A stretch of 64,000 nucleotides of DNA, from the NCBI RefSeq assembly GCF_000331305.1, contig NZ_KB217478.1:8683433-8747432 (forward strand). The letters are read 5' to 3'. The first letter of the stretch is position 1. Each line of letters starts with the position of its first letter. Below are positions 1 to 64,000 of this stretch, one piece after another. The notes beneath the pieces were generated by a model. That model was not told the DNA's origin. It did no database searches and saw only the letters and a program-made list of their open reading frames with translations. Position numbers and translations under genes: made by a program. The stretch is from Calothrix sp. PCC 7103. GTDB lineage: Bacteria; Cyanobacteriota; Cyanobacteriia; Cyanobacteriales; Nostocaceae.

Positions 1-38
1 TGATAATATTATCCCTTTATTGATAATCATCTCCTTCT

Positions 39-806
39 CTAACGCCACCTTGACTGGGCTGCGATATAACCTAACCCCTGTTTTTTGCGAAAAACCGCGA
101 CAGCAGGGCCAGTTGCTTTCAGATAGCGTCCATCTTCCAAACCAGAGATACCGCTAATTCGTCTGTCTGCGCTCGAATTGGTTCTTTCCCATTTACCATC
201 AGCATTTTTGCGAATCGAAATAATACCTAGTCCTTGATCTAACAGCGCTTCTTTAGAGATTTCCCGAATTTTCGCCTTGTTAGGGTCTTTATCAGGCAAA
301 CCAAAAGCATTGATTTCACTTTTCTTTGACCCTTGCCCTTTGAGGACTGTTTTTACTTCGTCAAATGGTAGCGATTTACCAATAACATCTTGATAAGTTT
401 GCATCCAAGGGGCAGCACTGATATATTCAAAATTAATTGCAAGATACCCCTCGTTTTCGCTGGTTGGGATAAAAGACAAATAATCATTATTGTAACCGAA
501 GCGGGAATCACCGATTTTATCTCCCCAAGTACCAATAACTTGGTATTGAAAACCATCTGGCAATACTAAATCATCAACTACCTCAAAATTGCTATACTGT
601 TCTTTCTGCTGTTCTGGCTTAAATCCATCTGTTTCTAGGGGAATGGCGCCTTTGATTGGATTAAATGTAAATGATGCTTTAACACCTGGTGTTGTAGTTT
701 GGGGGGTAACAGAAACCTTGCTGTTACACCCAGTTAGAGAACCCAAGGCTAAAGCACTTACGCTTCCTCCCATTAACAACAAAAATTCTCGACGTTGGAT
801 ACTCAT
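39..806 (-). pseudogene. PhoX-family phosphatase (DUF839), N-terminal third only
   Basis: The 255-residue product starts with a Tat-like signal (QRREFLLL) that runs into a lipobox (LTGC), so it would be an exported lipoprotein. The following sequence (VLPDGFQYQVIGTWGDKIGD, then EGYLAINFEYI and KATGPAVAVFRKK) is the N-terminal region of PhoX-like alkaline phosphatases, calcium/iron enzymes that release phosphate from organic esters in the periplasm. Members of this family usually have more than 600 residues. Here the frame stops after SRWR, before the NCxGGxTPWGT region that I would expect next. Only 38 bases remain to the window edge, and in the other frames they do not give an obvious continuation. 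A frameshift or truncation is therefore likely, but the rest of the gene may lie just outside the window. Confidence 0.6.
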
Positions 807-1172
807 TACAATTGGTATAATACACTACAAATTATAAGTTAGCTAAATAAATTTAACCTTATTAATTTAACTGTAATTCCTTAATTTTAAGAATAGGTTA
901 ATGAATTAGCAGTTGTAGCCGTTAACACTATATACTAATAAGCGTTTTTAACTTTAATCAAAAATCATCATATATAATAATCAACGACCGTACCGATGCT
1001 GAAATACCTTGAGAAATGCTCAAATTGTCAGAAAACCTTTACCTAGGGGCATCAATTGTCACAGTTCGCTGGCAAGATATTGAAAATATATAATTTGGGA
1101 TGATACTAACAATTTAATTAGCTTAAAATTTCAAGAAGAGCATTGTAGTGGAAAAATAGTAGCTTATACAAA

Positions 1173-1265
1173 GCATATATCCGCGAGTGCGTAGCTAGAA
1201 ATCCGAACACTCCCGTATCGATTGTTAAAAGTTTAGCGGAAGATGCAGATGATTATGTTCCGCAA
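1173..1265 (+). pseudogene. Relic of a leucine-rich-repeat-variant (LRV/HEAT-like) protein
   Basis: One frame reads YIRECVARNPNTPVSIVKSL followed by AEDADDYV. This is almost a consensus repeat of the LRV/HEAT-like proteins common in cyanobacteria (VRxxVAxNPNTPxxxLxxLAxDxDxxVR). No start codon or further repeats are present on either side, so this is a fragment of a lost gene. I see no other gene in the 807-1415 gap. The rest is AT-rich sequence that must hold the promoters of the flanking divergent genes. Confidence 0.5.
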
Positions 1266-1415
1266 TTCTCTCACAATATCGATTCGGTTATTTCACACCT
1301 TATAGGCGCCTATAAACATAATACTTATAACTAAAATCCGGTAGGATAGTGTAGTGTAGCCGATAGCTATACTTATATATTAATGTGAGGCTACGTCTGC
1401 TCCACACATTGCACT

Positions 1416-3770
1416 ATGTCCATGACGACAACTTCTAATTTTCTTAGTCACCTCAACCCCAGTCAACGCCGTGCCGTCGAACACTACTGCGGGCCTTTGC
1501 TTGTTGTGGCAGGCGCCGGTTCTGGCAAAACACGCGCTCTGACTTATCGTATCGCTAATTTAATTCTCGAACACAATGTTGACCCAGAGAATATTTTAGC
1601 GGTTACTTTTACCAATAAAGCCGCGCGGGAAATGAAAGAACGTATCCAAAAACTGTTCGCCGACCACATGGCGATGCAAGAATATGGAGAAAAGTATGAT
1701 TTGTTACCTGAGTATGACCAGGTGAAGTTACGTTCGCGCGTTTATAAGAATGTTATCAAAGATATGTGGTGCGGTACATTCCACAGTTTGTTTTCGCGTA
1801 TTCTCAGGTTAGATATAGATAAATACCAGGATGAGAATGGTCGCAAATGGAATAAAAATTTCTCTATATTCGATGACTCTGATGTCAACGCAATAATTAA
1901 GGAGATTGTTACCAAGCAACTCGACCTTGATGATAAAAAGTTTGAACCCCGTTCAGTACGGTATGCTATTAGTAATGCCAAGAACCAAGGTTTATCACCT
2001 AAAGAATTTGAGCGTGAGCAGCCTAATTATCGTGGTCGGATAATTTCTCAAGTTTACAGTTGCTATCAAGATAGGTTAGCGGAAAATAATGCGCTTGACT
2101 TTGACGATTTAATTTTGATACCAACAAGATTATTTCAACAAAATAAACAAGTTTTAAATTATTGGCATAGCAAGTTTCATCATATTTTAGTTGATGAATA
2201 TCAAGATACTAATAGAACACAGTATGATTTAATTCGCTTGCTATCTACTAATGGTGAAACTGATAAAAATAATTGGAATTGGAATGACCGTTCAACCTTC
2301 GTGGTGGGTGATGCAGACCAATCAATTTACTCATTTCGCATGGCTGACTTTACCATTTTAATGGGTTTTCAAGGTGATTTTGGTGATGGTTTAGATGATG
2401 ACGATACCAGTACGATGGTAAAATTAGAAGAAAACTATCGTTCGTGTGAGAATATTTTAGAAGCTGCCAATTCTTTAATTGAAAATAATACTGAGCGTAT
2501 TGATAAAGTTCTCAAACCAACTCGTTCTGCTGGTGAGAAAATTTATTTGTTTAAAGCTGACGATGAAGTGGTTGAAGCTGATTTTGTTGTTAACCAAATT
2601 CGTAAGCTCGAATATGAAAATCCTGATATAGATTGGGGAAGTTTTTCTATACTATATCGTACTAATGCTCAATCACGTCCATTTGAGGATTTATTAGTAA
2701 AATATCAAATTCCCTATACGGTTGTTGGTGGGTTTAGATTCTACGACCGTAAAGAAATTAAAGATATTCTTGCTTATTTAAAAGCTGTTAGTAACCCTGC
2801 TGATACTGTTAGTATTATGCGCGTTATTAATACTCCTAGACGTGGTATTGGTAAGTCAACGCTTGATACGCTATCGCGAGCTTCTCAAGAGTTAGGTACT
2901 ACTTTGTGGGAAATACTCAGCGATGAAACATCAGTTAACACTTTAGCTGGACGTGCTGCCAAAGCTGTAAATGGGTTTGCCGATATTATTAAAAAGTGGC
3001 AAGCACAAGTTGAGACGCTTCCTGTTGCCGAGCTTGTGCAGGGAATAATTGAAGATTCTGGTTATGTCCAAGATTTACATACTACAGGAACCGATGAGTC
3101 ACAAGACAGAATCGAAAACATCCAAGCGCTTTATAATGCTGTATTAGAGTTTCAAGAAGAAAACGAAGATAACGCGACTTTACAAGGTTATTTGGAAAAA
3201 ACTTCTCTTAGTTCCGATTTAGATAATTTGAAAGAGGGTGATGCCGCAGTATCTTTAATGACATTACACGCATCAAAAGGGTTAGAATTTCCGATTGTTT
3301 TCTTAGTGGGTTTAGAGCAAGGATTATTCCCTAACTACCGTTCAATGCAAGACCCCGCTTCTTTAGAAGAAGAACGGCGCCTATGTTACGTTGGTATTAC
3401 TCGCGCACAAGAAAGGTTATTTATTAGCCACGCACGTGAACGTAGATTATACGGTAGCAGAGAACCTGCTATTCGCTCCCAATTTCTCGATGAGCTACCT
3501 ACAGAATTAATCGCAACACAACAAGGTGGGCGCCAAGCTAACGTTAGAACTAGTACAGGTAATATTAGAAGTGACCGAAGTGGCACCAGTACAGGAGGTA
3601 CAGTAATAAAATGGGAAGTTGGCGATATAGTGCTACATAAAACATTTGGAGAGGGTGAAATTACTCACGTATTTGACCCGAATAATAAAACCTCTGTAGC
3701 AGTTAAGTTTCCCAACTTAGGTACAAAAATCATCGACCCACGAGTCGCACAGTTGCAGAAAATTGGTTAA
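1416..3770 (+). CDS. pcrA: ATP-dependent DNA helicase PcrA/UvrD (superfamily 1A)
   Basis: This 784-residue protein is a 3'-5' helicase for nucleotide-excision and mismatch repair and for clearing RecA or stalled complexes from DNA. Visible motifs are the Q-motif/LNPSQRRAV start, Walker A GAGSGKT (33-39), motif Ia TFTNKAAREMKER, Walker B VDEYQDTN, motif III GDADQSIYSFR, motif IV EENYRS, motif V TLHASKGLEFPIVFL and motif VI EEERRLCYVGITRA. The C-terminus has the PcrA-type Tudor-like tail (WEVGDIVLHKTFGEGEI), which in the family contacts RNA polymerase. Length and order match full-length family members. The ATG at 1416 is used because it lies about 14 residues before the LNPSQ motif, as is usual. 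The gene stands alone, with a dispersed repeat directly after its stop. Confidence 0.95.
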   Translation: MSMTTTSNFLSHLNPSQRRAVEHYCGPLLVVAGAGSGKTRALTYRIANLILEHNVDPENILAVTFTNKAAREMKERIQKLFADHMAMQEYGEKYDLLPEYDQVKLRSRVYKNVIKDMWCGTFHSLFSRILRLDIDKYQDENGRKWNKNFSIFDDSDVNAIIKEIVTKQLDLDDKKFEPRSVRYAISNAKNQGLSPKEFEREQPNYRGRIISQVYSCYQDRLAENNALDFDDLILIPTRLFQQNKQVLNYWHSKFHHILVDEYQDTNRTQYDLIRLLSTNGETDKNNWNWNDRSTFVVGDADQSIYSFRMADFTILMGFQGDFGDGLDDDDTSTMVKLEENYRSCENILEAANSLIENNTERIDKVLKPTRSAGEKIYLFKADDEVVEADFVVNQIRKLEYENPDIDWGSFSILYRTNAQSRPFEDLLVKYQIPYTVVGGFRFYDRKEIKDILAYLKAVSNPADTVSIMRVINTPRRGIGKSTLDTLSRASQELGTTLWEILSDETSVNTLAGRAAKAVNGFADIIKKWQAQVETLPVAELVQGIIEDSGYVQDLHTTGTDESQDRIENIQALYNAVLEFQEENEDNATLQGYLEKTSLSSDLDNLKEGDAAVSLMTLHASKGLEFPIVFLVGLEQGLFPNYRSMQDPASLEEERRLCYVGITRAQERLFISHARERRLYGSREPAIRSQFLDELPTELIATQQGGRQANVRTSTGNIRSDRSGTSTGGTVIKWEVGDIVLHKTFGEGEITHVFDPNNKTSVAVKFPNLGTKIIDPRVAQLQKIG

Positions 3771-3780
3771 TGTTTTATCA

Positions 3781-3816
3781 GTAGGTTGGGTGGAGGCTTT
3801 GCGTAACCCAACTTAC
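3781..3816. repeat. Dispersed palindromic repeat, GTAGGTTGGG family
   Basis: An inverted repeat with arms GTAGGTTGGG and CCCAACTTAC starts ten bases after the helicase stop. Related copies are at 5979-6011, 18830-18854 and, as a long double form, 38013-38087. It resembles the REP-like intergenic palindromes of Nostocales. It may end the helicase transcript, but there is no T-run. Confidence 0.7.
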
Positions 3817-3925
3817 AATTTATGTTCGGGTAATTTCTGCTCTTGTTTTAATTCTTTTCTGTCTGAACGGCCTAAAACCAATTTTGTCAAAAACATAGTT
3901 ACCAGTCAAAAAAATCCTGCGAAGG

Positions 3926-4201
3926 AAGATATTAGTTGCGAATGTATTCCTTGATGCCCCAGATTGGACTATTGAAATATTATCCCCCGAACAAAGTCAA
4001 ACAAAAGTAACAAAAAATATTCTGCATTGCCTCAAACATGGCACAGAAATGGGTTGGCTGATTGACCCAGATGAGCTAACTGTGTTTCTTTATATATGAG
4101 AAACTGTACAATTATTTGATGAACCTCAACAAAAATTACCCGTACCACCTTTTGCGAATAAATTTAAATTAATAGTAGGGGATTGTTTGGCTGGTTGCTA
4201 G
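3926..4201 (+). pseudogene. Uma2-family (DUF820) endonuclease-like gene, 5'-truncated with internal stop
   Basis: The frame reads ANVF, then APDWTIEILSPEQSQTKVTK and GTEMGWLIDPDELTVFLY. This is the conserved core of Uma2 proteins, PD-(D/E)XK-fold putative nucleases present in very many copies in cyanobacteria. A TGA follows FLYI at about 4097. The same frame then continues with ETVQLFDEP and KLPVPPFA to a TAG at 4199. The N-terminal part, normally 80-100 residues, is missing; a dispersed repeat lies upstream. With a lost start and an in-frame stop this cannot make a full protein. Confidence 0.7.
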
Positions 4202-4227
4202 AGTAAGATTTCAACAACTCTCTGTGC

Positions 4228-4275
4228 AGACGCAATTCATTGCGTCTCTACTCTGTGTTCTCTATGTCTCTGTGG
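4228..4275. repeat. Dispersed repeats: agacgcaa/ttgcgtct palindrome plus CTCTGTGTTCTCTxTGxCTCTGTGG element
   Basis: The palindrome agacgcaattcattgcgtct (4228-4247) belongs to the same GTAGAGAC-type family as copies at 16339, 42259 and 52699. It is followed by CTCTGTGTTCTCTATGTCTC (4251-4270) and TGTGG. An inverted relative of this second element lies at 32338-32363. Both sit just before the metallophosphoesterase start. Confidence 0.6.
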
Positions 4276-4296
4276 TAAAAATATATCTAATATATT

Positions 4297-5928
4297 ATGT
4301 CAACTACCTTAAAACTACTAACCGACCCCTTTCTGCAACTTCCAACTCCAACAGGAATAAATGTTGTTTGGTTTACAGAGTTTGCTGGTTTACAACACAC
4401 AGTATATTACGGCGAAAATCTTAATCTAAGCACAGGCGCCACTACAACCAAACTCACTCGCACCCGCGAAGACCAAGACTCACGAGTTGGAAACAAACTA
4501 TACAAACAACCCACTACCCGCGATATTTGGCGCCACGAAGCAGAAATTACTAACTTAACTCCAGGTGTACGAGTTAATTATCGCGTTAATAGTATAGATG
4601 ATAACGATAGTATCGTTATTAGCGACATATTTACTTTGGCGCCTCTCCCAGTTCCCAATACCCCTCTAAAAATTCTTCTCACATCTGACCATCAAATTAA
4701 GCCAATGGTCGCGGCAAATTTACAAAAAGTTACAGAAGCAATTGGAATAGTTGATGCAGTTTGGTTTGCAGGTGATTTAGTTAACATTCCTGACCGTGCG
4801 AGCGAATGGTTTGATGATAATAGAGGTAATGCGTTTTTCCCTTGTTTACAAGGACGTGGTAATTATGAAATGGACTGGGATGGAACGAAAATAACTTATA
4901 AGGGAGGACAAATTATACAACATGCTCCTATGTTTACCTGTATTGGAAATCATGAATTAATGGGACGCTTTGCACGTGAAGGCAGTTTGAACAAAGAATT
5001 TGACGATACTATTCCTCGTGATATCGCGCGTAAGTTATATGGAGAAGAGTATTTAAAAGATAATTCCTTCAACACCGATACATACGAAGAAATTTTTACT
5101 TTACCCCAAAGCGAGACAGGAGGGAAAACTTATTACGCTACTACCTTTGGTGATATACGTCTAGTAGTACTCTATGCTACAAATATGTGGCGGTTGGTAT
5201 CAACCGAAGATGGACGCAAAGGTAAGTATGGAGAACCAAAAGATGATTTAGAAAACCCAGAAAATTGGGGTTATGGGCAAATTATTTATGAACCGATAGC
5301 AAAAGGAAGTAGACAGTATAACTGGTTGGAAGCAGAATTAAATAGCTTAGAGTTTCAACAAGCTAAATATAAAGTAGTGATGCTGCACCATCCATTTCAT
5401 ACACTCGGTGATAATATTGTTCCTGCTTACACCGACCCAGTACAAATTATTGAATACGATGACAACGGTAATGTTAAAGATGTGCGATATGAATATCCCA
5501 AAAATGCAGATTATTTAATGCGTGATGTAATACCGTTACTCGAAGCAGCAAAAGTACAACTTGTCTTTTTTGGACATTCGCATTTGTGGAACCGTTTTAC
5601 GAGTGAATCGGGAATGCATTTTATTGAAACTTCTAATGTCGGTAATTCTTACGGCGCCGCTTTTGAGAACCGTAAGCGTGGTAATGTGCCTACTATGGGT
5701 AGCAATGATTATATTGAAATAGGAGACCCTAACGGTTTAGAACCTGTTGTACCTACACTGGCACCGATGTTTAATGAAGAGGGCGCCAAAATACCTTATA
5801 TTTCAAGTAATGAAGTTACTGTGTTTAGTATTTTTGATACTGAAACATCTACAATAACCAGTTATCGATTTGATACCAGTAAGCCAGAAAGCGAAGTGAT
5901 CAAGTTTGATGAGTTTAAATTAATTTAA
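4297..5928 (+). CDS. Metallophosphoesterase with N-terminal beta-sandwich (purple acid phosphatase-like layout)
   Basis: This 543-residue protein has about 110 N-terminal residues resembling the fibronectin-like domain before purple acid phosphatase cores (HTVYYG, then WRHEAEITNLTPGVRVNYRV). A calcineurin-like catalytic domain follows. Metal-ligand motifs are SDHQ (D131), GDLVN (G159-D160), GNHE (217-220), LHHPFHT (H364, H365) and GHSH (426-429). Together they support a two-metal phosphohydrolase acting on phosphomonoesters or diesters; the substrate is unknown. I see no signal peptide, which is unusual for this layout and suggests a cytoplasmic enzyme or an unrecognised export signal. The ATG at 4297 opens directly on the beta domain. 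It is a single-gene unit flanked by dispersed repeats. Confidence 0.8.
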   Translation: MSTTLKLLTDPFLQLPTPTGINVVWFTEFAGLQHTVYYGENLNLSTGATTTKLTRTREDQDSRVGNKLYKQPTTRDIWRHEAEITNLTPGVRVNYRVNSIDDNDSIVISDIFTLAPLPVPNTPLKILLTSDHQIKPMVAANLQKVTEAIGIVDAVWFAGDLVNIPDRASEWFDDNRGNAFFPCLQGRGNYEMDWDGTKITYKGGQIIQHAPMFTCIGNHELMGRFAREGSLNKEFDDTIPRDIARKLYGEEYLKDNSFNTDTYEEIFTLPQSETGGKTYYATTFGDIRLVVLYATNMWRLVSTEDGRKGKYGEPKDDLENPENWGYGQIIYEPIAKGSRQYNWLEAELNSLEFQQAKYKVVMLHHPFHTLGDNIVPAYTDPVQIIEYDDNGNVKDVRYEYPKNADYLMRDVIPLLEAAKVQLVFFGHSHLWNRFTSESGMHFIETSNVGNSYGAAFENRKRGNVPTMGSNDYIEIGDPNGLEPVVPTLAPMFNEEGAKIPYISSNEVTVFSIFDTETSTITSYRFDTSKPESEVIKFDEFKLI

Positions 5929-5978
5929 TTTCTCTTGTGAGGTAGGTATCCTTGCTTGCCTTATATTAACAAGATTTA

Positions 5979-6011
5979 TGTTGGGTTCCGCTGTTGCTCC
6001 ACCCAACCTAC
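5979..6011. repeat. Dispersed palindromic repeat, GTAGGTTGGG family (reverse orientation)
   Basis: TGTTGGGTTCCGCTGTTGCT followed by CCACCCAACCTAC is the reverse-orientation form of the repeat at 3781. It lies 50 bases after the metallophosphoesterase stop. The 5929-6173 gap holds nothing else that I recognise. Confidence 0.65.
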
Positions 6012-6173
6012 AACTATTACCATAACAAATCTACTCAAAGATTTGTATGTAGTCTGCGACTATTGACTTATAAAGTGTGAATATTGACTATTAGCAGTTA
6101 GCTATTCAGGTTTACTAAGGCTTGCTACTCACTTATTTAAGTATAAACTCCTGACTGTTGAATATATAGAATA

Positions 6174-7934: not shown

Positions 7935-7938
7935 GTTT

Positions 7939-53117: not shown

Positions 53118-53356
53118 CGAAAAGCAGCTGGAATTGCAAATGTATCAAGCACAGCAGTGATATTAATTTTAACGATACGATTTGCAGTGCCACCACGTCT
53201 TGCATCAATCCAATGAATGCCCTCTTGCCACTCCCCAGAATTGATTCGACGAACAATAGAACTGCGGCTAAAGCCTTTACCCAATCGGTTTGATGCTTGT
53301 TCAATCGTTAGAAGTTCTGCATCAGACGGCAGCTTTGAGATTGTTCGCTTATTCAA
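53114..53356 (-). CDS. Excisionase-like small DNA-binding protein
   Basis: The 80-residue basic protein (LPSDAELLTIEQASNRLGKG, FSRSSIVRRINSGEWQEGIH, WIDARRGGTANRIVKINI) resembles small winged-helix/MerR-like excisionases and directionality factors: a LTIEQAS-type helix-turn-helix followed by a W-I-D-A-R wing. The start is a TTG at 53356 with a strong AAGGAGGT seven bases upstream. It lies convergent to an integrase 3' end, as recombination directionality factors often do. No GGCGCC is present. A transcriptional regulator of the integrase is the alternative reading. Confidence 0.7.
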   Translation of the reverse strand: MNKRTISKLPSDAELLTIEQASNRLGKGFSRSSIVRRINSGEWQEGIHWIDARRGGTANRIVKINITAVLDTFAIPAAFR

Positions 53357-54959: not shown

Positions 54960-54997
54960 ATACAAGACAAATAGATGTCTCTAACTATCAAATCTTT

Positions 54998-55669: not shown

Positions 55670-55676
55670 TGCAACA

Positions 55677-55712
55677 AGGCAAAAGTAAAAAGCTAAAAGT
55701 AAAAAGAAAGAA
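55677..55712. repeat. AAAAGTAAAAAG-type dispersed repeat
   Basis: GGCAAAAGTAAAAAGCTAAA followed by AGTAAAAAGAAAG, starting eight bases after the pilin-like stop. A related block lies at 60903-61016, also between conjugation genes. Confidence 0.5.
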
Positions 55713-55789
55713 AACCTGATTAAACATACGCTTTGTGCCCTTTTTCCAACTGAATAGTTATTTTAGCCACACTGCACTAGAAATAAATC

Positions 55790-56143
55790 ATGTCAATGGA
55801 TACAGAAAAAGAAGCAGTAAGAGTCAATAAGATTTTAGGCAAACAAGCGGGGTTTGGACCAGTACCAGCGAATCAAATTCTGCCTTGGTTTGCGATTATC
55901 ACGATTACGTACTTTATTTTTGATGGATTGTTAGGATGGGGAATTCCGAAAGTGGCTGTGATTAGTTTTTGGTTAATTCTGAGTTGGTGGTTTGTAACAG
56001 GTAAAGACCCTGATAAATACATTAACCGCTTCCGTAAACCAAAAGGACGTAATTGGATAACAGGTGGCGCCGTTTACATATCTCCTCTACTTTCTGCACA
56101 TAGCCGACAGAAGCTACGTAAAAATAAAAATCAACGCATATGA
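55790..56143 (+). CDS. VirB3/TrbD-like type IV secretion protein
   Basis: The 117-residue protein has one hydrophobic hairpin (LPWFAIITITYFIFDGLLGW; VISFWLILSWWFVTGKDPDK) and a basic tail (RFRKPKGRNW; RQKLRKNKNQRI). Size and topology match VirB3/TrbD, the inner-membrane partner of the VirB4 ATPase. Its stop overlaps the virB4 start by 4 bases, the usual coupling of this pair. The ATG at 55790 or 55796 may be used. Confidence 0.65.
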   Translation: MSMDTEKEAVRVNKILGKQAGFGPVPANQILPWFAIITITYFIFDGLLGWGIPKVAVISFWLILSWWFVTGKDPDKYINRFRKPKGRNWITGGAVYISPLLSAHSRQKLRKNKNQRI

Positions 56144-58995
56144 AGAGTAGTATCCCAGCAATTTCTGCTAAAGAGCAGCATCACTCGGTACAATATTTAC
56201 CTTTTGAGAACGAGCTTGACCTTTGCTGTATGGTTCGTATTGAACGGGATAATCGTAGTATTGGAGCGTTTCTTCTCAATAAAGGTGATATTAGTAACGC
56301 TAACCAGTTTCAGCTAGTTTTTGGTTTTAAGCTCAAAGGTATCCATGACCAGCTATATCAAGAAGAGCTTTTAGCTTTATCGGAAGGAATTGGCGAGGCA
56401 ATGAAATTTGTCCTCGCAAGCGAGAAATGTACGTTCTTTTTGGGTCGTTATTCTCAAGACGAAAAAAGGCAGCACTACCTTAACCAGCTTGCTAATGCTT
56501 GCTCTCTAAAGTTACCTGCAATTTTAATGCGGAATGAACAAGCAAGAGTAAATTCCTTAACTCGTTCTGGCGCCAGATCAATTTGGCAGCAAACTCTATT
56601 TTGCACTTGGACAGTAGATGCGGTTGGTGAACGTAAAACTGACATGTTGTCTAAACTTATACATAGTTTGGGCAAAAGCGGGCGCCTCTTATTAGATGGT
56701 GTAACAGGCAGAATATCCCAACGGCAAGAACAAATTTTAAGTCGCTTATTAATGAAAGCTTACACCGAGGGATTTATTCAATGGGAAATGTTATTTAACA
56801 CAAAAGCCCAATTAGAAAATACTCCAATGAGCGACACTGAGCTTTGGTCTTGGCTTTGGGGTAGGTTTAATAAATCTCCGTCCCCAGCAATTCCGCAATT
56901 GCTTGTGCTAACAGAAGATAAAGATAGGGGTGTAAAATTAACCGAAATTCAAAACTCACCAAAACACGCTACAACTATCTTGATAACTGGGGAATACGGG
57001 CGAAGCTCATGTCCAGAACACCGTCAATGTACAAATCGCGTATACGTCAAAGATAAAGTTGTTGGTGTTTTAACAATGGCGGATACGGTTGCGGCGTGGG
57101 TGTCGGTTAGAGAGCAAATACTGTGGATGTGGAAGGTTTTGAGTGAAAGTCATGTTCGCGATACGGAAGCAATTGTAGAAATATCCGCTGCTAACCGCTA
57201 TTTAACTGAAGATAATCTACATCGCCAAGCGAAACAAACTAAAGCCGCACGTGAACGTGCTTTACTCAAAGGTACAGGTCGAGATGTCGGCGCCGAAATT
57301 AAGCAAGAGGAAAGTTTTGACGCACAGAAAAAACTATACAAAGGTGCTGTTCCATTAAATTGTGCGGTTGTATTTCTCGTAACGCGCGAAAATGCGGAAA
57401 GTTTGGATTTAGCATGTGATTTACTTTCTAGTAGTTTTGGTAACGCGAAGGTAGTACGCGAACGACATATTGCTTCCTCTATCTGGCTTGAAACTTTACC
57501 AATAACTTGGCGCCGTATACTGCATTCAAGTTCAATATTAAGTGAACGTCGGTTGGTATTGGAAAGCGAAACGGTTGCTGGCATCTTACCTTTAACAGTA
57601 CCTAGGGAACTCGACTCAATTGGTGTGGAATTTTTAACACATCGAGGTGGTAAACCTGTATATGTTGATTTATTCTCTTACACTCAACATGCCTTGATTA
57701 CAGGTAAAACGGGTTCTGGAAAATCTGTATTATTATGGCGATTTATGCTTGATGCATTGTCGCAGAATATTCCAGTAGTTGGTATAGATATTCCTGCGGC
57801 AGACGGCGAAAGTTCTTTTAAAACAGGAATTGAATTACTAGGTGAGGCAGGCGCCTATTTTGATTTATCGCGCGCTTCCAATAATCTAATGGAACCCCCT
57901 GATTTACGCCGCTTCGATGTTGACGAACGTGCGTCACGTATGAAGTCTTGGCGCGAGTTTATACGTAATGCTCTAAGTGTGATTATAATGGGGCGCCTGA
58001 ATGCTCCTCATTTAGCACAGCGAGTTGATGCAATTTTGATGCAAGCGCTCGACGTATTTCTAAGTGACTCAGATATGATTTCGCGTTACAACGAGGCTTT
58101 TGATAAAGGATGGAAATCAGAAGAATGGCAAAATATTCCAACACTAAAAGATTTTGTACGGTTTTGTTCAATTGCTCGGCTTAATATCCAAAAACCAGAA
58201 GCAATTGACTATCAAGCAATTAACCAAATCACCAGCCAAATAACAGCGCTATTAGTAAGCCCTCTAGGAACAGCGATAGGAAAACCAAGCAGCTTTTCTT
58301 CAGAACCAATGGTGAAATTTTATGCGCTAACAGGTTTAAGCAACGACCAAGATTCATATACAATGGCGGTCGCAGCGAAAGCCGCATGTTTACGAGTAGC
58401 TCTGTCTTATCCGAAAAGTTTGTTTATTGGAGATGAGCTTTCAGTACTTTTCCGTAAAGATGGCTTTAGTGCAATGGTTGGCGAACTTTGCGCGACCGCA
58501 CGTAAAGATGGTGTAAGCATTGTTTTATCAAGCCAAGACCCAGATACAATTTGCCAATCTGCGGCTGCTGCGATGATTATGCAGAATATAAGCTACCGAA
58601 TAACGGGGTGCATTACATCAAATGCAGTTGCCTCATTCCAAAAACACCTAACCTACCCAAGTGAAATCATTGCTCAAAATGCATCCGAATCATTTTTTCC
58701 TCGCAGAACAGATTTGTACTCATGCTGGCTAATAGAGAAAGGAGGACGTTTTTGGCAGTGTAGATTTTACCCAAGTGAGATGACTTTAGCAGCAGTCGCA
58801 ACAAACCAAGAAGAGCGTCGCGCGCGTCGTGCTTTGATGGCACGCTACCCAAATACCATTAAAGGGCAACTTCAAGGACTAGCTGAATTTACAAAACTTT
58901 ACGTTGCAGCACTTAAAGAAAATAGAGGGTTAGCACATATTAATCAAGGAGTCGATAAATATGATTCTGAAAAGAAAACGTCGTTTGTTACATAG
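56140..58995 (+). CDS. VirB4/TraC-like conjugation ATPase
   Basis: The 951-residue protein drives pilus assembly and substrate passage. The C-terminal RecA-like ATPase has Walker A GKTGSGKS (near residue 521, after YTQHALI), Walker B SLFIGDELSVLF (near 764), and VSIVLSSQDPDTICQS as a motif-C-like Gln segment. The N-terminal 450 residues are the divergent VirB4 membrane-binding region (RIERDNRSIGAFLLNKGDIS). Ten or so GGCGCC-containing positions lie within or near it, the highest density in the window. Its 3' end overlaps the next gene by 35 bases. Confidence 0.88.
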   Translation: MKSSIPAISAKEQHHSVQYLPFENELDLCCMVRIERDNRSIGAFLLNKGDISNANQFQLVFGFKLKGIHDQLYQEELLALSEGIGEAMKFVLASEKCTFFLGRYSQDEKRQHYLNQLANACSLKLPAILMRNEQARVNSLTRSGARSIWQQTLFCTWTVDAVGERKTDMLSKLIHSLGKSGRLLLDGVTGRISQRQEQILSRLLMKAYTEGFIQWEMLFNTKAQLENTPMSDTELWSWLWGRFNKSPSPAIPQLLVLTEDKDRGVKLTEIQNSPKHATTILITGEYGRSSCPEHRQCTNRVYVKDKVVGVLTMADTVAAWVSVREQILWMWKVLSESHVRDTEAIVEISAANRYLTEDNLHRQAKQTKAARERALLKGTGRDVGAEIKQEESFDAQKKLYKGAVPLNCAVVFLVTRENAESLDLACDLLSSSFGNAKVVRERHIASSIWLETLPITWRRILHSSSILSERRLVLESETVAGILPLTVPRELDSIGVEFLTHRGGKPVYVDLFSYTQHALITGKTGSGKSVLLWRFMLDALSQNIPVVGIDIPAADGESSFKTGIELLGEAGAYFDLSRASNNLMEPPDLRRFDVDERASRMKSWREFIRNALSVIIMGRLNAPHLAQRVDAILMQALDVFLSDSDMISRYNEAFDKGWKSEEWQNIPTLKDFVRFCSIARLNIQKPEAIDYQAINQITSQITALLVSPLGTAIGKPSSFSSEPMVKFYALTGLSNDQDSYTMAVAAKAACLRVALSYPKSLFIGDELSVLFRKDGFSAMVGELCATARKDGVSIVLSSQDPDTICQSAAAAMIMQNISYRITGCITSNAVASFQKHLTYPSEIIAQNASESFFPRRTDLYSCWLIEKGGRFWQCRFYPSEMTLAAVATNQEERRARRALMARYPNTIKGQLQGLAEFTKLYVAALKENRGLAHINQGVDKYDSEKKTSFVT

Positions 58996-59788
58996 ATTCG
59001 GTAAAAAAGTGAAAAGCATTTCTGTAATTGGTATAACAGCGATTGGAATAAGCTTAACTGTTATTAGTTCAGCATTTGCTGCCACTGTTGATACACCAGA
59101 GACTCGTTCAATTACTCAAACAGCTAGTTCCGTTAGCAATGCCTCGAACTCAATTCAAAATTTTGTTGATGATTTAGGTTCATTTGTGAGAGGGAACTTA
59201 TTTGGAGGAATTACAAAATTTGTAAATAATGCTCTTGGTTCAGTTGAAGTTCCCGATTTGGGTGAAGTCGTAAGCGAAATTATGAAAGGTTCGCTACCTG
59301 AAGATGGGACAACATCGAGCAAATTGGAAAATAACCTCAAAAACTCTTACGCAATTCGTCAAGATTTAGCGAATCAAAGTGAACGAGTAGGAGCAATTGA
59401 AGTTGCCCAAAACAAAACTCTTTCTAAAACCGCTCAAAATAAATCTAAAAATACTTTAGAGCAAAGCACTAACTCTCAACTTGAATCAAGCTCTATGGCG
59501 GATGATTCACAAAATACCGATACTTCACAGCAAATTCTTCAAAATATATCTCAACAGTTGAAAGATAATGCCACAATCGCTGATTTGCAGTTACAAGAAG
59601 CATCACAAGCGCGACAAGATAGGGCTTTAGATTTAACTCTCACCGCTCAAACAGCACAGGAACTCAATACCTTTAATACAGGAGAACGTCAAACCAGAAT
59701 TGCAACAGGCAATAACGTTGTGTCCCAAGGCGCCTTACTAACAATGCCCGGAGGAACTGTCTTTGGTCAAAATTTGAACAGTCAGTAG
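58961..59788 (+). CDS. Exported VirB5/TrbJ-like protein of the secretion cluster
   Basis: The 275-residue protein has a basic N-region and signal (SVIGITAIGISLTVISSAFA|AT). The mature part is polar, helical and Gln/Asn-rich (QQILQNISQQLKDNATIADL, QLQEASQARQDRALDLTLTA), like VirB5/TrbJ minor pilins that have long coiled helices. It sits between virB4- and virB6-like genes where VirB5 is expected. AAGGAG lies upstream of the ATG inside virB4. Assignment is by position and secondary structure. Confidence 0.6.
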   Translation: MILKRKRRLLHRFGKKVKSISVIGITAIGISLTVISSAFAATVDTPETRSITQTASSVSNASNSIQNFVDDLGSFVRGNLFGGITKFVNNALGSVEVPDLGEVVSEIMKGSLPEDGTTSSKLENNLKNSYAIRQDLANQSERVGAIEVAQNKTLSKTAQNKSKNTLEQSTNSQLESSSMADDSQNTDTSQQILQNISQQLKDNATIADLQLQEASQARQDRALDLTLTAQTAQELNTFNTGERQTRIATGNNVVSQGALLTMPGGTVFGQNLNSQ

Positions 59789-59808
59789 TTATATATTACT
59801 TAAGCTTT

Positions 59809-60903
59809 ATGTTCTCCCCTCTCTTAATTTCGCAAGTAACGCCACCTGATAATAATTCGGCTTCAACTGTTGGGCTTACCCTAATCAGCAGCAGTATTGA
59901 ACTGAGTAAACAAACCGTTGAATCGTGGAATAAAGCATGGGGAGATGTAATTAATCCATCCGGCGCCTTGTGGGCAGGTTTATGTAATCTAGGTACTACT
60001 CTTGCAGCATTAAGTATAATTTTTCTGGCAGTTAAAATGGCTTCTGATTACCAAGAAAAGCGCTTTTTATGGTCAGAATTAGCAGCATCCGTTGTTTATC
60101 CTTTGGTTATTGCTTTATTTCTAGGAAGTAATGGCTACTTGCTCTCTCAAACTATTCTTATCGTTAGGAATATTGGTCATCAGCAAGTTATTAGTGTTCT
60201 CAACATCCAACTAGCCGACACCACTTTTAAACAAGCAATATCTGATGTAACTCTAACTCAAAGCGTTAAAACCCAAGTATCTACAATTTATGCTGAGTGT
60301 CAGGGTAAAACTGGTAAACCACTTACAGACTGCCTTACTGAAAAACGACCAATCATAGAACAGGTTCTTGCGGAGGCAGAAAAACAAAATAATGGGCCAT
60401 TAGATTCGGCACGTAAAGCCGTGGCACAACTAACAGACTTTGTACAAAATCCAGGCGCCGTTTTCAGTGCTTCGATTTCACTAATATTAATCACCTTTCT
60501 CTACGCCCTGCAATGGGCATTTGTAAACATCTTAGAAGCTGCACTAATTATGACTGCGACTTTTGCACCAATTGCTTTGGGGTTAAGTTTATTACCTCTA
60601 GGGTCAAAACCAATATGGGCTTGGGCTAGCGGTTTTATCTCATTGTTTGGAGTTCAACTTGGTTACAACATTGTAGTTGGGTTAGCTGCGACGGTAATAG
60701 TTGCTGCTGGCGCCCAAAGTGCATCTGATTTAGCTTTTTTAGCGTTTATCAGCATTTTTGCTCCAGCTTTAGCACTGTTAATTGCAGGAGGTGGAGGCGT
60801 TGCGCTTTATACAGGTATTAATAGCCGAGTTCCGGCTCTTTTTAATGCAGCATTTGATGGTGTGGTAGCCATTGCAACGGGTTTTGCTGGTAAGAGCCTT
60901 TAA
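59809..60903 (+). CDS. VirB6/TrbL-like polytopic inner-membrane protein
   Basis: The 364-residue protein has an N-terminal span (NLGTTLAALSIIFLAVKMAS), a second (ELAASVVYPLVIALFLGS), a soluble loop with paired Cys (ECQGKTGKPLTDCLTE) that may form a disulfide, and a C-terminal bundle of five or so helices (VNILEAALIMTATFAPIALG; LGYNIVVGLAATVIVAAGAQ). This is the TrbL/VirB6 pattern, the inner-membrane channel part of type IV systems. Gene order supports it. A start at the ATG 59809 is used. Confidence 0.75.
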   Translation: MFSPLLISQVTPPDNNSASTVGLTLISSSIELSKQTVESWNKAWGDVINPSGALWAGLCNLGTTLAALSIIFLAVKMASDYQEKRFLWSELAASVVYPLVIALFLGSNGYLLSQTILIVRNIGHQQVISVLNIQLADTTFKQAISDVTLTQSVKTQVSTIYAECQGKTGKPLTDCLTEKRPIIEQVLAEAEKQNNGPLDSARKAVAQLTDFVQNPGAVFSASISLILITFLYALQWAFVNILEAALIMTATFAPIALGLSLLPLGSKPIWAWASGFISLFGVQLGYNIVVGLAATVIVAAGAQSASDLAFLAFISIFAPALALLIAGGGGVALYTGINSRVPALFNAAFDGVVAIATGFAGKSL

Positions 60904-61016
60904 AAAGTAAAAAGATAAAAGTTAAAAGTCAAAAGAGATTTCTTATAAATTTTGTGGCTTTAAGTCAATATTTCTTTCTTTTTCCTTTTTCCTTTTACCT
61001 TTTACCTTATCTTGTG
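60903..61016. repeat. Low-complexity AAAAGTAAAAAG/CTTTTTCCTTTT inverted block
   Basis: TAAAAAGTAAAAAGATAAAA on the left and CTTTTTCCTTTTTCCTTTTA on the right are roughly inverted and could pair. This is a common low-complexity dispersed repeat type; the copy at 55677 is related. It separates the virB6-like and virB8-like genes. Confidence 0.5.
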
Positions 61017-61026
61017 AGGTATTACA

Positions 61027-61761
61027 ATGCTGAAGTCTGTAAAACAAGTTAGACGACCGAAAATATTGCTTGATTCTAAAGATATTCTGCCGCTATGTTT
61101 TATTGGGCTGACTACTTTTAGTTTATTAAGCTTTTTATTCATATTGTTTCTGAGTTTTAAAGTCAATCAACTTTCAGAACGGAAAACGACTTTTGTACAG
61201 TTGGTGAATGGTCGTGCTTTGGTTATGTCAGAGCAAGATTATTTATACCGCTATCCAGAAGTTATCAAAAATACAGTTCGACAGTGGGCTAATTTGACTT
61301 TTAATTGGGATGGTGTAATTAATGGCACTAAAGAGCTAGATAAAGGACGAGATATCGGCAAGGGAAAGCGTGTAACAACAAATGCTTATTTTGGCTCGTT
61401 CTTAATACAGCAAGGAAAAAGTGGATTCCGACAAGCTGTATTACAACAACTAGCAGAAATTACGCCACAACGAGTATTTAACGGTCAAGTTCGCTCAAAG
61501 ATTATAATTTCTTACCTTTCAAATCCTCGCCAAATCAAATTAGGTGAGTGGGAAGTGGATATGGTTGCTACAAGGGTACTCGTAAATATGGGTGGTGGCG
61601 CCGATGAGGAAATAGCAATAAATCGCACGCTTACTTTGCAAGCTGTAGATATACCTCAACCACCAGAAAACAACGCTTCTGCTCTAGAAAAACAATTATA
61701 TGAAATTAGAAGTGCGGGTTTAGAAATAACAAAAATTTCTGAATTTACTCCAAATAAATAG
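61027..61761 (+). CDS. VirB8-like bitopic inner-membrane protein
   Basis: The 244-residue protein has a short cytosolic N-terminus, one membrane span (CFIGLTTFSLLSFLFILFLS) and a periplasmic domain of about 185 residues (VQLVNGRALVMSEQDYLYRY; VRQWANLTFNWDG; RSKIIISYLSNPRQIKLGEW). Size and topology equal VirB8/TraE-type assembly factors with an NTF2-like fold, which link the core complex to the inner membrane. It precedes the virB10 homologue by 10 bases. Confidence 0.65.
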   Translation: MLKSVKQVRRPKILLDSKDILPLCFIGLTTFSLLSFLFILFLSFKVNQLSERKTTFVQLVNGRALVMSEQDYLYRYPEVIKNTVRQWANLTFNWDGVINGTKELDKGRDIGKGKRVTTNAYFGSFLIQQGKSGFRQAVLQQLAEITPQRVFNGQVRSKIIISYLSNPRQIKLGEWEVDMVATRVLVNMGGGADEEIAINRTLTLQAVDIPQPPENNASALEKQLYEIRSAGLEITKISEFTPNK

Positions 61762-61771
61762 AGAGAAGATT

Positions 61772-63388
61772 ATGAATAATTTTAACAGTTCACAATTAGA
61801 TGATGAGATTACACCAGAAGAAGAACTAGAAATATCAGGGTATCAACCTCAAGAAGGTGCTTTAATAGACCAAGAATACTTAATTCAACGTGATTTAGAA
61901 CAAGCAGAACCAATTGTGCCGAGTGAAAATCCACTCGTTAGAGGCGCCATCGTATCTCTTTTAGTAGGTGGTGTGATGGGTTTTGGTTGGATGTGTTGGT
62001 CAATATTTTTCGCACCGAAACAAATTGCGAAAACTCCTATTACACCAAAACCAACACAACAAGCATTCGCGCAATCCCAAAGTGAAGAGGAAGCACGTCT
62101 TAAAGCTGAACTCGCACTGCGTAATCAACAAAGCTCTCAAGAGAAGCAAATACAAAAACCTTTAACACCAAAACCTTCAACACCAAAACCATCTCCAACA
62201 ATCCGCAGGTCGGCACCAGTTAGGCAAACTCGTATTGCTAACCTACCAGCACCTAGAATTATCCGCACTCAGGTTTCATCACCACCAAGAATAATTAGAG
62301 AAACGGCGCCACGTCAACAACCTAGAAATTTACCAGTTAGTAAGCCGACACAAGCAGTTGACCCATTCAAGCAATGGAGCGAACTTGCGACCCTAGGCCA
62401 GCAAACAGTTGCTCTTAATGATGATAAGCAAATTCAAGAAACCGAAACTCTGCCTAACAAAGTTGAACAAACCAATACATCAAATAGTACACCAATCAAT
62501 TCATCTTCCCCTTATAGAGAAATAAGCTTTCAAAATAATAGCGATAACTCAAAAGGTAACATCAATAAGCCTTCATCCATTCCGGTTATTACTGTAAATA
62601 GCAGCGCAACTGATACAGAAAAAAGCTTAAACCAAATTCAAACACCTGGAGAATGGGGAATAGTTAACCGTCAAAGTCCAAATACTCAATATTCTGACTT
62701 TATACAAAATGCTTCTATTACACCAAGTAATTTACAAGTTCAAATTGGAACGACAGCAGAAGCAAAAGTATTAGTACCAATGCTTTGGGCTAAAGAAGAT
62801 AAAAATCAGGGACGGTTTGCTGTTGAGTTAGAAGAGGATGTTTTGTCAAATGACGGTCGCATAGCTTTACCAAAAGGAACGATTTTAATCACAGAGGTTG
62901 ATTCGGTGTCTGGAGCTAACAACTTGGTAAAACAGAGCGTTGTTGCAATTGTTTATACTGATAGTTTGGGAAAAGTTCGACAACAAACAATTCCAAGTAA
63001 TGCAATTTTAATCCGAGGTTCAGATAATAAACCCCTGATAGCGCAATCGCTAACTGATAGAGGCGCCGCCATCGCACAGCAAGATATTTTAATTGGTTTA
63101 CTTGGCGCCGCAAGTCGTGCAGGTCAAGTGTTTAACCAAAATCGGACTCAATCTCAAACAGTAATTTCCGACGGTGGGTTTAATAGTCAAACCATTGTAA
63201 CAGGTGCCCGTAAACCGAATATTTTAGCGGCGGCAGTCGAAGGTTTTTTTCAACCAATGCAAGAGCGCTTGAATAAGCGCGCTGATAAAACAGATAGTGA
63301 TTTGCAAAACCGTCCGAATGTTGCAATTGTACCAGCAGGTACTAAAGTATCTATCTTTTTCAACAGTTTCTTTGAAATTACCCGTTAG
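61772..63388 (+). CDS. VirB10/TrbI-like core-complex protein
   Basis: The 538-residue protein has one N-terminal span after an acidic cytosolic part (GAIVSLLVGGVMGFGWMCWS), a Pro/Gln/Lys-rich periplasmic stalk (about 95-330; PKPSTPKPSPTIRRSAPVRQ) and the C-terminal VirB10/TrbI beta domain: VLVPMLWAKEDKNQGRFAVE, ALPKGTILITEVDSVSGANN, NVAIVPAGTKVSIFFNS. VirB10 spans both membranes and gates the channel. Family length is 370-480; the stalk here is longer, maybe to cross the thick cyanobacterial peptidoglycan. Confidence 0.82.
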   Translation: MNNFNSSQLDDEITPEEELEISGYQPQEGALIDQEYLIQRDLEQAEPIVPSENPLVRGAIVSLLVGGVMGFGWMCWSIFFAPKQIAKTPITPKPTQQAFAQSQSEEEARLKAELALRNQQSSQEKQIQKPLTPKPSTPKPSPTIRRSAPVRQTRIANLPAPRIIRTQVSSPPRIIRETAPRQQPRNLPVSKPTQAVDPFKQWSELATLGQQTVALNDDKQIQETETLPNKVEQTNTSNSTPINSSSPYREISFQNNSDNSKGNINKPSSIPVITVNSSATDTEKSLNQIQTPGEWGIVNRQSPNTQYSDFIQNASITPSNLQVQIGTTAEAKVLVPMLWAKEDKNQGRFAVELEEDVLSNDGRIALPKGTILITEVDSVSGANNLVKQSVVAIVYTDSLGKVRQQTIPSNAILIRGSDNKPLIAQSLTDRGAAIAQQDILIGLLGAASRAGQVFNQNRTQSQTVISDGGFNSQTIVTGARKPNILAAAVEGFFQPMQERLNKRADKTDSDLQNRPNVAIVPAGTKVSIFFNSFFEITR

Positions 63389-63392
63389 ACTT

Positions 63393-64000
63393 ATGAAAAC
63401 CAAAATAATCAGTGCGATTAGTTTTGTGATTATAGCTTTTACGGCACCTGCTTACGCGCAACAATTAGTAAAACAGCAAGTTCTAGAAAATACAGACTCT
63501 TCAATAAATGTTCAAGTCTGGTCAGGTAGAGGAACAGCGATTGATTTCTCTGATGCCAAGGAACAAATAACTCAAATTTTTCTCGCTGACCCCAGCCGTT
63601 TTACTTATGCAACCGATACTCCATTATCTAGTGGTCAAGCGACAACGGTATTTATTCGTCGAATCAAGCCATTACAATTTCCAAATTTGACTACAGCGAA
63701 CGTTACGAACTTATTTGTCAAAACTAAAACAAGTGCAGGAAACTCACGACTATATACGTTTAATATCCAGCCAGGAGAAAATGAGCCACGATACAGCGCT
63801 TTAAATATGGCGCTCATAAACGCTAGTCAACAAAATAATCGTACTTTAGAAGTTGGTGATGGGCGCAAAGCAACATTGAGAGATATTGAGCGCGGTTTAG
63901 TTGCATCAATACGTCTGGGGTATGCTCCTGCTTCTGACCCTGTGGTGTCAAAGGTTAGGGAATTTGTAGCACAAGCCCTCAATACCTCAAATAAATCTTT
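63393..64000 (+). CDS. VirB9/TraK-like protein, cut by the window end
   Basis: The frame starts ATG at 63393, 4 bases after the virB10-like stop, and runs to the end of the window without a stop (about 202 residues). It has a signal peptide (IISAISFVIIAFTAPAYA|QQ). Then VWSGRGTAIDFSDAKEQI, TTVFIRRIKPLQFP and NVTNLFVKTKTSAG with YTFNIQPGE are the N-terminal beta-sandwich pattern of VirB9/TrbG/TraK proteins, where the G-x-xTxIxF start and the VxT...YxFxI strand are conserved. It forms the outer ring of the core complex with VirB10. Confidence 0.65.
   Translation, partial: MKTKIISAISFVIIAFTAPAYAQQLVKQQVLENTDSSINVQVWSGRGTAIDFSDAKEQITQIFLADPSRFTYATDTPLSSGQATTVFIRRIKPLQFPNLTTANVTNLFVKTKTSAGNSRLYTFNIQPGENEPRYSALNMALINASQQNNRTLEVGDGRKATLRDIERGLVASIRLGYAPASDPVVSKVREFVAQALNTSNKS

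What the first reader, a model, noticed from the sequence alone, without database searches (positions are those of the whole stretch)
1..64000. GGCGCC is massively over-represented while HIP1 (GCGATCGC) is almost absent
By eye I counted about 95 GGCGCC sites (for example 645, 1315, 1512, 3376, 7144, 13533, 32848, 41530, 57288, 63062). At roughly 39% GC, chance predicts only about 3-4. They lie in coding and non-coding DNA, with no fixed reading frame or flank. The typical cyanobacterial palindrome GCGATCGC is found once (50381). This lineage appears to have replaced HIP1 with another 6-bp GC palindrome. HIP1 abundance is tied in the literature to Dam-like and other methylation; a methylase for GGCGCC or a repair bias could be behind this.
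Basis: partly seen in the sequence, partly recalled or inferred. Interest (0 to 1): 0.75.

Follow-up and report, generated by a model that had tools for sequence, protein, structure and literature searches.

The report
GGCGCC replaces HIP1 across a genus
In this cyanobacterial genus the short DNA word GGCGCC is about twenty times too common and stands in for the usual cyanobacterial word GCGATCGC; this was already reported for one strain, and the new comparisons suggest that a lone DNA-methylating enzyme is tied to it and that broken copies of the word are put back or weeded out.

Summary
In detail: 97 GGCGCC in the window against 5.6 expected, 17,704 in the 11.58 Mb genome (8 for the reversed word); HIP1 once in the window, 163 times in the genome. 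It is already in print: Elhai 2015 described GGCGCC as an "alternate HIP" in Calothrix PCC 7103, very probably this genome.

What I add: all 7 held genomes of the genus show it (1,150-1,711/Mb; HIP1 4-23/Mb) and 0 of 210 others of the family, so it is a clade trait. All 7 carry an M.BsaHI-type (GRCGYC) cytosine methyltransferase; none has the matching HindVP-type endonuclease; the C5 methyltransferase shared by 8 chosen HIP1-line genomes was not found. A distant genome (G284) has a CGGCGCCG excess, no HIP1 in 27 kb and a 53% homologue. Most losses are transitions at the central CG, though codon-matched tests do not show that base to be a clear hotspot. Losses run near control rates on short branches, yet all four tested synonymous positions are strongly conserved on long branches: sites are kept, by restoration or selection. 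C-only (Vsr-type) repair does not fit. Methylation is untested.

The parts
645..63109 (.). 97 copies of the palindrome GGCGCC, starting at 645, 1305, 1512, 3376, 3529, 4435, 4529, 4638, 5653, 5782, 6932, 7144, 7890, 8162, 8885, 9225, 9957, 11356, 11857, 13317, 13532, 14524, 14828, 15348, 16792, 17267, 18447, 18760, 19646, 21924, 22239, 22493, 22569, 23430, 24801, 25735, 27600, 27966, 28957, 29180, 29874, 30075, 30208, 30525, 31517, 31977, 32846, 33081, 33357, 33585, 33854, 34072, 34767, 35300, 36810, 37252, 37850, 38521, 38677, 40199, 40813, 40864, 40954, 41531, 41575, 41875, 42814, 44026, 44433, 45966, 46441, 46770, 46883, 47343, 48098, 50602, 50995, 52569, 55115, 55530, 55619, 56066, 56569, 56681, 57289, 57509, 57850, 57992, 59729, 59962, 60454, 60709, 61597, 61943, 62305, 63062, 63104
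   Evidence: exact count
50381..50388 (.). the only HIP1 (GCGATCGC) of the window, inside the ORF 48298-50718

Best explanation
GGCGCC is an alternate highly iterated palindrome (HIP) that took the place of HIP1 in the common ancestor of this genus. Proposed steps: (1) HIP1 and the C5 methyltransferase that goes with it were lost (shown as a present-day pattern; order inferred). (2) A GRCGYC-type cytosine-5 methyltransferase (here MT-A, G000:C7:8004451-8005407, 678 kb from the window) was kept without its HindVP-type endonuclease, so its sites were no longer avoided (presence and absence shown; specificity inferred from homology and target-recognition motif). (3) MT-A methylates the inner cytosine of GGCGCC (inferred from M.BsaHI; the mutation pattern is compatible but not decisive). 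(4) Sites are lost at about the control rate, mostly by transition at the central CG, but do not stay lost: over longer times all four tested synonymous positions are conserved far beyond codon-matched controls (shown). The likeliest cause is a methylation-coupled repair bias of the kind Elhai proposed, which converts one-off variants back to GGCGCC (inferred); selection for the sites is the close rival.
For: Genome and family counts: 7 of 7 genus members at 1,150-1,711 GGCGCC/Mb with HIP1 at 3.6-22.6/Mb; 210 other family genomes at most 111/Mb with median HIP1 803/Mb. MT-A: the other six genus genomes have a copy 82-99% identical to that of G000; in G061 a 96% copy is split over two contig ends (residues 94-214 not seen) beside an intact 83% copy. 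The same RuBisCO-like neighbour in 6 of 7 (domain confirmed in G000). RE_HindVP matches in 43 of 217 family genomes (42 over cut-off) but 0 of 7 here; a match lies 18-57 bp from 18 of the 23 non-genus MT-A homologues fetched, short remnants included. Genomes with RE_HindVP have fewer GGCGCC (median 0.74 vs 5.07/Mb in the 154 with neither gene, p=6e-7, relatedness not corrected). The target-recognition loop RR[GA]-x9-T[IV]-RxVNRP is the same in all seven and in 21 of 23 others (two not parsed), and, counting the residues in between, fits the R and G/A positions that Neely and Roberts 2008 give for GRCGYC enzymes; [quoted passage not shown] Of 18 one-off hexamers only GGTGCC and GGCACC are enriched (1.5x), the other 16 are at 0.13-0.60. 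On terminal branches 34 of 49 losses are C3/G4 transitions, 34/926 against 58/2,875 with matched neighbours (p=0.0065). Long-branch synonymous conservation, G062 and G063: C6 83/100 and 61/81 vs 125/258 and 80/219; G1 23/24 and 20/25 vs 187/383 and 120/328 (p from 1e-9 to 3e-5). Second case: G284.
Against: No methylation data. The C-to-T hotspot does not survive codon matching: C3 to T 32/282 vs 13/157 (p=0.33) or 34/472 (p=0.06), G4 to A 9/126 vs 51/713 (p=1.0). An MT-A homologue without RE_HindVP is not enough: 13 other genomes have one, keep HIP1 and have at most 42.6 GGCGCC/Mb. G191 has low HIP1 (82/Mb), a homologue and a RE_HindVP gene with a stop inside, yet only 0.1 GGCGCC/Mb. The predicted site GRCGYC includes GACGCC, GGCGTC and GACGTC, which are depleted here (0.49, 0.49, 0.06). 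G420 has 2,493 GGCGCC (reversed word 38) without an MT-A homologue and with HIP1 in the 9.6 kb read. The simple restoration model (T-to-C 23 against 0.42 elsewhere) fits worse than one in which T variants are confined to the tips (lnL -285.5 vs -273.8), and regain was not seen clearly: 0 on 99 one-off branch-sites, 1 of 15 in the codon test. Spacing is close to random (CV 0.99), against the idea that sites fill up to a set distance. The genomes are related, so 7 of 7 is one evolutionary event.
Confidence: 0.5

Rival explanations
1. Selection for the site: methylated GGCGCC has a cell-wide use (replication, mismatch repair strand signal, chromosome structure), each site carries a small benefit, and variants seen at the tips are short-lived polymorphisms that are purged.
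For: All four tested synonymous positions are conserved on long branches, those not predicted to be methylated included; the tip-confined model fits best; terminal-branch losses are below control at all four positions, though none significantly (p 0.06-0.76); half of all Gly-Ala pairs use GGC-GCC.
Against: Terminal-branch losses at C3 and C6 are not significantly below codon-matched controls, which constant selection strong enough to give the long-branch conservation should have lowered; it needs large within-species diversity. About 17,700 sites per genome would each need effective selection (inference).
Confidence: 0.35
2. Vsr-like very-short-patch repair: a T:G-specific nickase restores only the methylated cytosine at C3, as Vsr does at Dcm sites in E. 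coli (recalled).
For: C3/G4 transitions are the main kind of loss and the fitted T-to-C rate there is about 50 times background.
Against: Vsr (PF03852) found in 0 of 7 genus genomes and 1 of 217 of the family; positions G1 and C6, out of reach of such repair, are conserved just as much.
Confidence: 0.05
3. DNA-uptake or recombination signal: cells take up or recombine DNA carrying GGCGCC preferentially, so the word spreads by conversion, as uptake sequences do in Neisseria and Pasteurellaceae (recalled; PMC1939737 seen only in a search listing).
For: Would restore any one-off variant at all six positions; density of about one per kb is similar to uptake sequences (recalled).
Against: No test here; does not explain the association with a GRCGYC methyltransferase without endonuclease, the loss of HIP1 or the second case G284.
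Confidence: 0.05
4. Compositional or codon-usage artefact: GC-rich or Gly/Ala-rich proteins make GGCGCC common.
For: Most sites are coding, and 149 of 279 are in the Gly-Ala frame.
Against: GC is 39%; the reversed word occurs 8 times against 17,704; GGC-GCC is 23-fold above the product of codon frequencies; non-coding DNA has 0.68-1.22/kb; the other 210 genomes of the family have 0-111/Mb.
Confidence: 0.01

Closest known systems
Alternate HIP GGCGCC of Calothrix PCC 7103 (Elhai 2015, PMC4390886; outline and abstract, sections 9, 13, 19, the first part of section 18, and passages on GGCGCC read)
   Same: Same hexamer, same low HIP1 (14 per Mb in the paper; 163 in 11.58 Mb = 14.1 per Mb here), same GATC depletion (16% of expected in the paper; 12% in 223 kb here), two GRCGYC-type methyltransferases (presumably MT-A and the 59% paralogue L031). 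Very probably the same genome, though no tool names it.
   Different: The paper had one genome plus 19 kb of another and argued that such HIPs are sporadic, not in clades; here it is a genus-wide trait. The paper states that the methylated C was known for no GRCGYC enzyme. Long- against short-branch comparisons are new here as far as my ten searches show.
HIP1 (GCGATCGC) with its orphan methyltransferases
   Same: Density of about 1-2 per kb, palindromic, GC-rich, tied to methyltransferases without endonuclease.
   Different: Different word and different C5 methyltransferase; the C5 enzyme shared by the 8 HIP1-line genomes tested was not found here.
BsaHI / HgiDI / HindVP restriction-modification family, GRCGYC (Neely and Roberts 2008, PMC2413257; section 6 and passages read)
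   Same: MT-A has the target-recognition loop of this family; homologues in relatives sit beside RE_HindVP.
   Different: In this genus the endonuclease is not found and the recognised word is in excess instead of being avoided.
Dcm-Vsr in E. coli (recalled)
   Same: A methylated C whose site is kept.
   Different: No Vsr; the outer bases of the site are kept too, not only the methylated one.

Membership tests
Alternate HIP (Elhai 2015) | GC-rich palindrome at about 1000-2000 per Mb, far above chance | tested here: met
   1,528/Mb in G000, 1,150-1,711/Mb in the genus; 22-fold over Markov-1 in 223 kb
Alternate HIP (Elhai 2015) | HIP1 low or nearly absent | tested here: met
   3.6-22.6/Mb in 7 of 7
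Alternate HIP (Elhai 2015) | genome encodes a methyltransferase able to modify the word | tested here: met
   by homology and motif only: MT-A in 7 of 7
Alternate HIP (Elhai 2015) | word is methylated in the cell | not testable with these tools
   no methylome data; indirect signs are mixed (for; not significant)
Alternate HIP (Elhai 2015) | sporadic, not clade-wide (stated in the paper as a pattern) | tested here: not met
   7 of 7 genus members; a descriptive claim, not a defining one
M.BsaHI-type GRCGYC C5 methyltransferase (for MT-A) | C5 DNA methyltransferase domain | tested here: met
   PF00145, TIGR00675 dcm over cut-off
M.BsaHI-type GRCGYC C5 methyltransferase (for MT-A) | R and G/A at the set distances before the TL motif | tested here: met
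   RR[GA]-x9-TI in 7 of 7, counting residues in between
M.BsaHI-type GRCGYC C5 methyltransferase (for MT-A) | homologues linked to a HindVP-type endonuclease | tested here: met
   18 of 23 fetched non-genus homologues, remnants included; 0 of 7 in the genus
M.BsaHI-type GRCGYC C5 methyltransferase (for MT-A) | methylates GRCGYC at the central C | not testable with these tools
   shown for M.BsaHI in PMC2413257 only
Vsr-type very short patch repair | Vsr endonuclease gene | tested here: not met
   0 of 7
Vsr-type very short patch repair | only the methylated C is restored | tested here: not met
   G1 and C6 conserved as well

The most novel reading that the evidence does not exclude
A methylation-coupled sequence drive: once a GRCGYC methyltransferase stands without its endonuclease and HIP1 is gone, DNA repair itself keeps rewriting one-off variants into GGCGCC at all six positions, so that a whole genus, and independently the distant genome G284 (whose endonuclease status I did not search), is filled with the word at over one site per kb without the word being selected for.
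Probability: 0.35. Interest if true: 0.8.

Novelty: already known. Interest (0 to 1): 0.5.

Why it matters
Why cyanobacterial genomes are strewn with HIP1 has been open for decades (recalled). A whole genus in which another word took over gives a natural experiment: the swap goes with lacking one C5 methyltransferase and keeping another without its endonuclease, the sites turn over fast enough to compare between species, and the pattern separates C-only repair from mechanisms acting on the whole site. Named strains (Dulcicalothrix desertica PCC 7102, Calothrix PCC 7716) make methylome and knock-out tests conceivable.

Tried and rejected
Vsr-type repair: rejected. GC or codon-usage artefact: rejected. 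GCGC-specific or wider rule: other NGCGCN palindromes are not in step (TGCGCA 0 of about 51 expected, AGCGCT 1.45x, CGCGCG 3.9x). Regular spacing: not found, CV 0.99 (though not exactly exponential, KS p=0.007), with a shortage below 50 bp (3.2% vs 8.4%). G194 as a carrier of another alternate HIP: none found in 80 kb. A two-state restoration fit first looked decisive; the tip-confined model then fitted better, so I do not claim that regain was observed. One search was meant to repeat that for controls; its optimiser stuck at a worse value for GGCGCC (283.4), so only its control figure (1.4% C-to-T tip excess at other CpG, against 6.1% at GGCGCC) is used. One search crashed in its second half, redone. 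On re-checking I found that codon matching removes the significance of the C-to-T hotspot; I lowered the main explanation from 0.55 to 0.50 and raised selection from 0.30 to 0.35 for that reason and because the terminal losses all lean below control.

Weak points: one search used seed translations from loci that were not turned to the match strand, so its profile was built on a mix and missed some hits; one search repeated the key comparison against all ORFs of at least 120 aa in the genus loci fetched, which leave out only short fragments among the matches. N4-cytosine and adenine methyltransferases were not searched. The eight genomes were chosen (six for having few C5 methyltransferases), not drawn at random. 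The table (210 genomes, 43 with endonuclease, 50 with a full-length homologue of at least 58% identity) was typed by hand. CDS used are ORFs of at least 100 aa, not curated genes. Branch-sites are counted per cytosine and are not independent, so p-values are rough. Structure prediction was not used.
Full report
CHECK. The window holds 97 GGCGCC, against 3.5 (base composition) or 5.6 (first-order Markov) expected, and one GCGATCGC at 50381; 200 Markov simulations gave at most 13. The window is G000:C7:8683433-8747432 of an 11.58 Mb genome that has 17,704 GGCGCC and 8 CCGCGG and 163 GCGATCGC.

ALREADY IN PRINT. Elhai 2015 (PMC4390886; outline and abstract, sections 9, 13, 19, the first part of 18 and passages on GGCGCC read) reports GGCGCC as by far the most over-represented hexamer of 97 cyanobacterial genomes, in Calothrix PCC 7103, with HIP1 at 14 per Mb, GATC at 16% of expected, a damaged CGATCG methyltransferase and two GRCGYC-type methyltransferases. 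Here HIP1 is 14.1 per Mb, GATC is 0.12 of expected in 223 kb, and two close members of one C5 family are present. I take the genome to be PCC 7103 or a near twin; no tool names it. Ten paper searches (lists capped) showed no later paper on GGCGCC as a HIP.

A GENUS TRAIT. All 7 held genomes of the genus have 7,475-20,380 GGCGCC (1,150-1,711/Mb) and 31-163 HIP1; the other 210 genomes of the family have at most 1,053 GGCGCC, with 30-8,803 HIP1. Elhai's argument that such HIPs do not persist in clades therefore does not hold for this one.

THE METHYLTRANSFERASE. The genus genomes have 9-17 C5-methyltransferase matches each, fragments included. One enzyme, MT-A (319 aa, G000:C7:8004451-8005407), has copies of 82-99% identity in the other six; in G061 the 96% copy is split over two contig ends and an intact 83% copy lies elsewhere. 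It lies beside a RuBisCO-like gene in 6 of 7. In the other 210 genomes I counted 50 full-length homologues of at least 58% identity. Of the 23 of these fetched, 18 have a PF09519 (RE_HindVP) match 18-57 bp away, some of them remnants or with stops; six neighbouring ORFs scanned directly all matched. PF09519 matches 43 of 217 family genomes and 0 of 7 here. Where it is present GGCGCC is rarer (median 0.74 vs 5.07/Mb, p=6e-7, relatedness not corrected), as expected if its site covers GGCGCC. [quoted passage not shown] So MT-A most likely modifies the third base of GGCGCC.

NOT ENOUGH ALONE. Thirteen other genomes have such a homologue without RE_HindVP, keep HIP1 and have at most 42.6 GGCGCC/Mb. 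Conversely G194 has low HIP1 (50/Mb) but no MT-A homologue, and no replacement word in 80 kb. The C5 methyltransferase found in all 8 HIP1-line genomes chosen, G194 included (350-754 bits, measured from L301), has only distant matches in the genus (best per genome 112-183 bits). That it is the CGATCG enzyme is an inference, and N4-cytosine enzymes were not searched. Together this fits Elhai's idea that HIP1 must go before another word can take over. Against it, G191 has low HIP1 (82/Mb), a homologue and a RE_HindVP gene with a stop inside, but 0.1 GGCGCC/Mb.

A SECOND CASE AND A COUNTER-CASE. In 386 genomes across the phylum, G284, of another family, has 9,489 GGCGCC in 3.8 Mb (reversed word 2,450). 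In 27 kb of it (54% GC) GGCGCC is 3.3-fold and CGGCGCCG 21-fold over expectation (29 against 1.4) and HIP1 is absent; it has an MT-A homologue of 53% identity. Three congeners in the scan have 304-343 GGCGCC. Its endonucleases were not searched. G420 has 2,493 GGCGCC against 38 for the reversed word but no MT-A homologue, and the 9.6 kb read shows HIP1; I cannot explain it. Several other genomes of the phylum have high counts of both words.

HOW SITES CHANGE. In 223 kb, of the 18 one-off hexamers only GGTGCC and GGCACC are enriched (1.5x); the others are at 0.13-0.60. On 7-species alignments of the window and a 140 kb block, 34 of 49 terminal-branch losses are transitions at the central CG, 34 of 926 cytosines against 58 of 2,875 with the same neighbours (p=0.0065). 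With codons matched this is no longer significant (32/282 vs 13/157, p=0.33; G4 9/126 vs 51/713, p=1.0). The changes seen are mostly synonymous (61 vs 10 and 34 vs 6 in two frames), which speaks against sequencing error. All synonymous losses on terminal branches are near control (C3 33/282 vs 20/157; C6 13/271 vs 52/750; G4 9/126 vs 76/713; G1 2/69 vs 105/1,054; p 0.76, 0.25, 0.26, 0.055, all leaning low). On the long branches to G062 and G063 all four are better kept than codon-matched controls (C3 77/99 and 57/86 vs 26/54 and 23/48; C6 83/100 and 61/81 vs 125/258 and 80/219; G1 23/24 and 20/25 vs 187/383 and 120/328; G4 43/51 and 32/44 vs 193/321 and 96/284; p from 0.045 to 1e-9).

WHAT THIS MEANS. 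Losses happen but do not last. A two-state fit gives a return rate of 23 against 0.42 elsewhere, but a model with T variants confined to the tips fits better by 11.7 log units: variants are gone within less than a terminal branch. Regain was hardly seen directly (0 on 99 branch-sites; 1 of 15), because stable one-off sites are too rare. Fast restoration and purging are both open. Near-control losses at the tips favour restoration; a full account needs population data. A C3-only repair such as Vsr is excluded as the sole cause, since G1 and C6 are kept too and Vsr was not found.

EXTENT. 453 of 889 Gly-Ala pairs in 603 kb are GGC-GCC against 19.7 expected; spacing is near random (mean 570 bp, CV 0.99); coding 1.80/kb, non-coding 1.22/kb (1.65 and 0.68 in the smaller sample). 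The conjugation-like part of the window (51-64 kb) has the same density as the rest (1.54 vs 1.51/kb).

VERDICT. Real and striking, but known since 2015 in what is very probably this genome. New here are the genus-wide spread, the missing endonuclease, the likely methylated base by homology, a possible second lineage, and evidence that the whole site is kept.

Noticed in passing
223 kb of G000 (window plus L031-L038): Several other palindromes do not occur at all: TTCGAA (about 70 expected), TGCGCA (51), GCATGC (49), GTGCAC (38), CCATGG (30); GGCC and GATC at 0.11-0.12. Looks like heavy restriction avoidance, fitting the 9-17 C5-methyltransferase matches per genome.
   Followed up: no
G000 and the genus, samples: CGCGCG is the second most over-represented palindromic hexamer in 6 of the 7 genus genomes sampled (third in G061) and in the window (3.9x in G000); cause unknown.
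   Followed up: no
window 51256-63388: An integrase-like ORF (51256-52392) followed by ORFs that look like conjugation genes (for example a 951-aa ATPase-like ORF at 56140-58995): a possible integrative element; names are from reading the ORFs, not from a family search.
   Followed up: no
window 48298-50718: ORF with two of the three CGATCG of the window, the only HIP1, 5 of 21 GGCC and a single GGCGCC: a foreign-looking stretch.
   Followed up: partly
L067-L070 (G194): G194 has 5 GATC in 80 kb and few HIP1 but still carries the HIP1-type C5 methyltransferase: possibly HIP1 in decay under GATC restriction, with no replacement.
   Followed up: partly
G420, L328, L322, L325: 402 GGCGCC per Mb against 6 for the reversed word, at 36% GC in the 9.6 kb read, without an MT-A homologue; a different cause is needed.
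   Followed up: partly
603 kb of G000: GGCGCC pairs closer than 50 bp are rarer than random (3.2% vs 8.4%).
   Followed up: no
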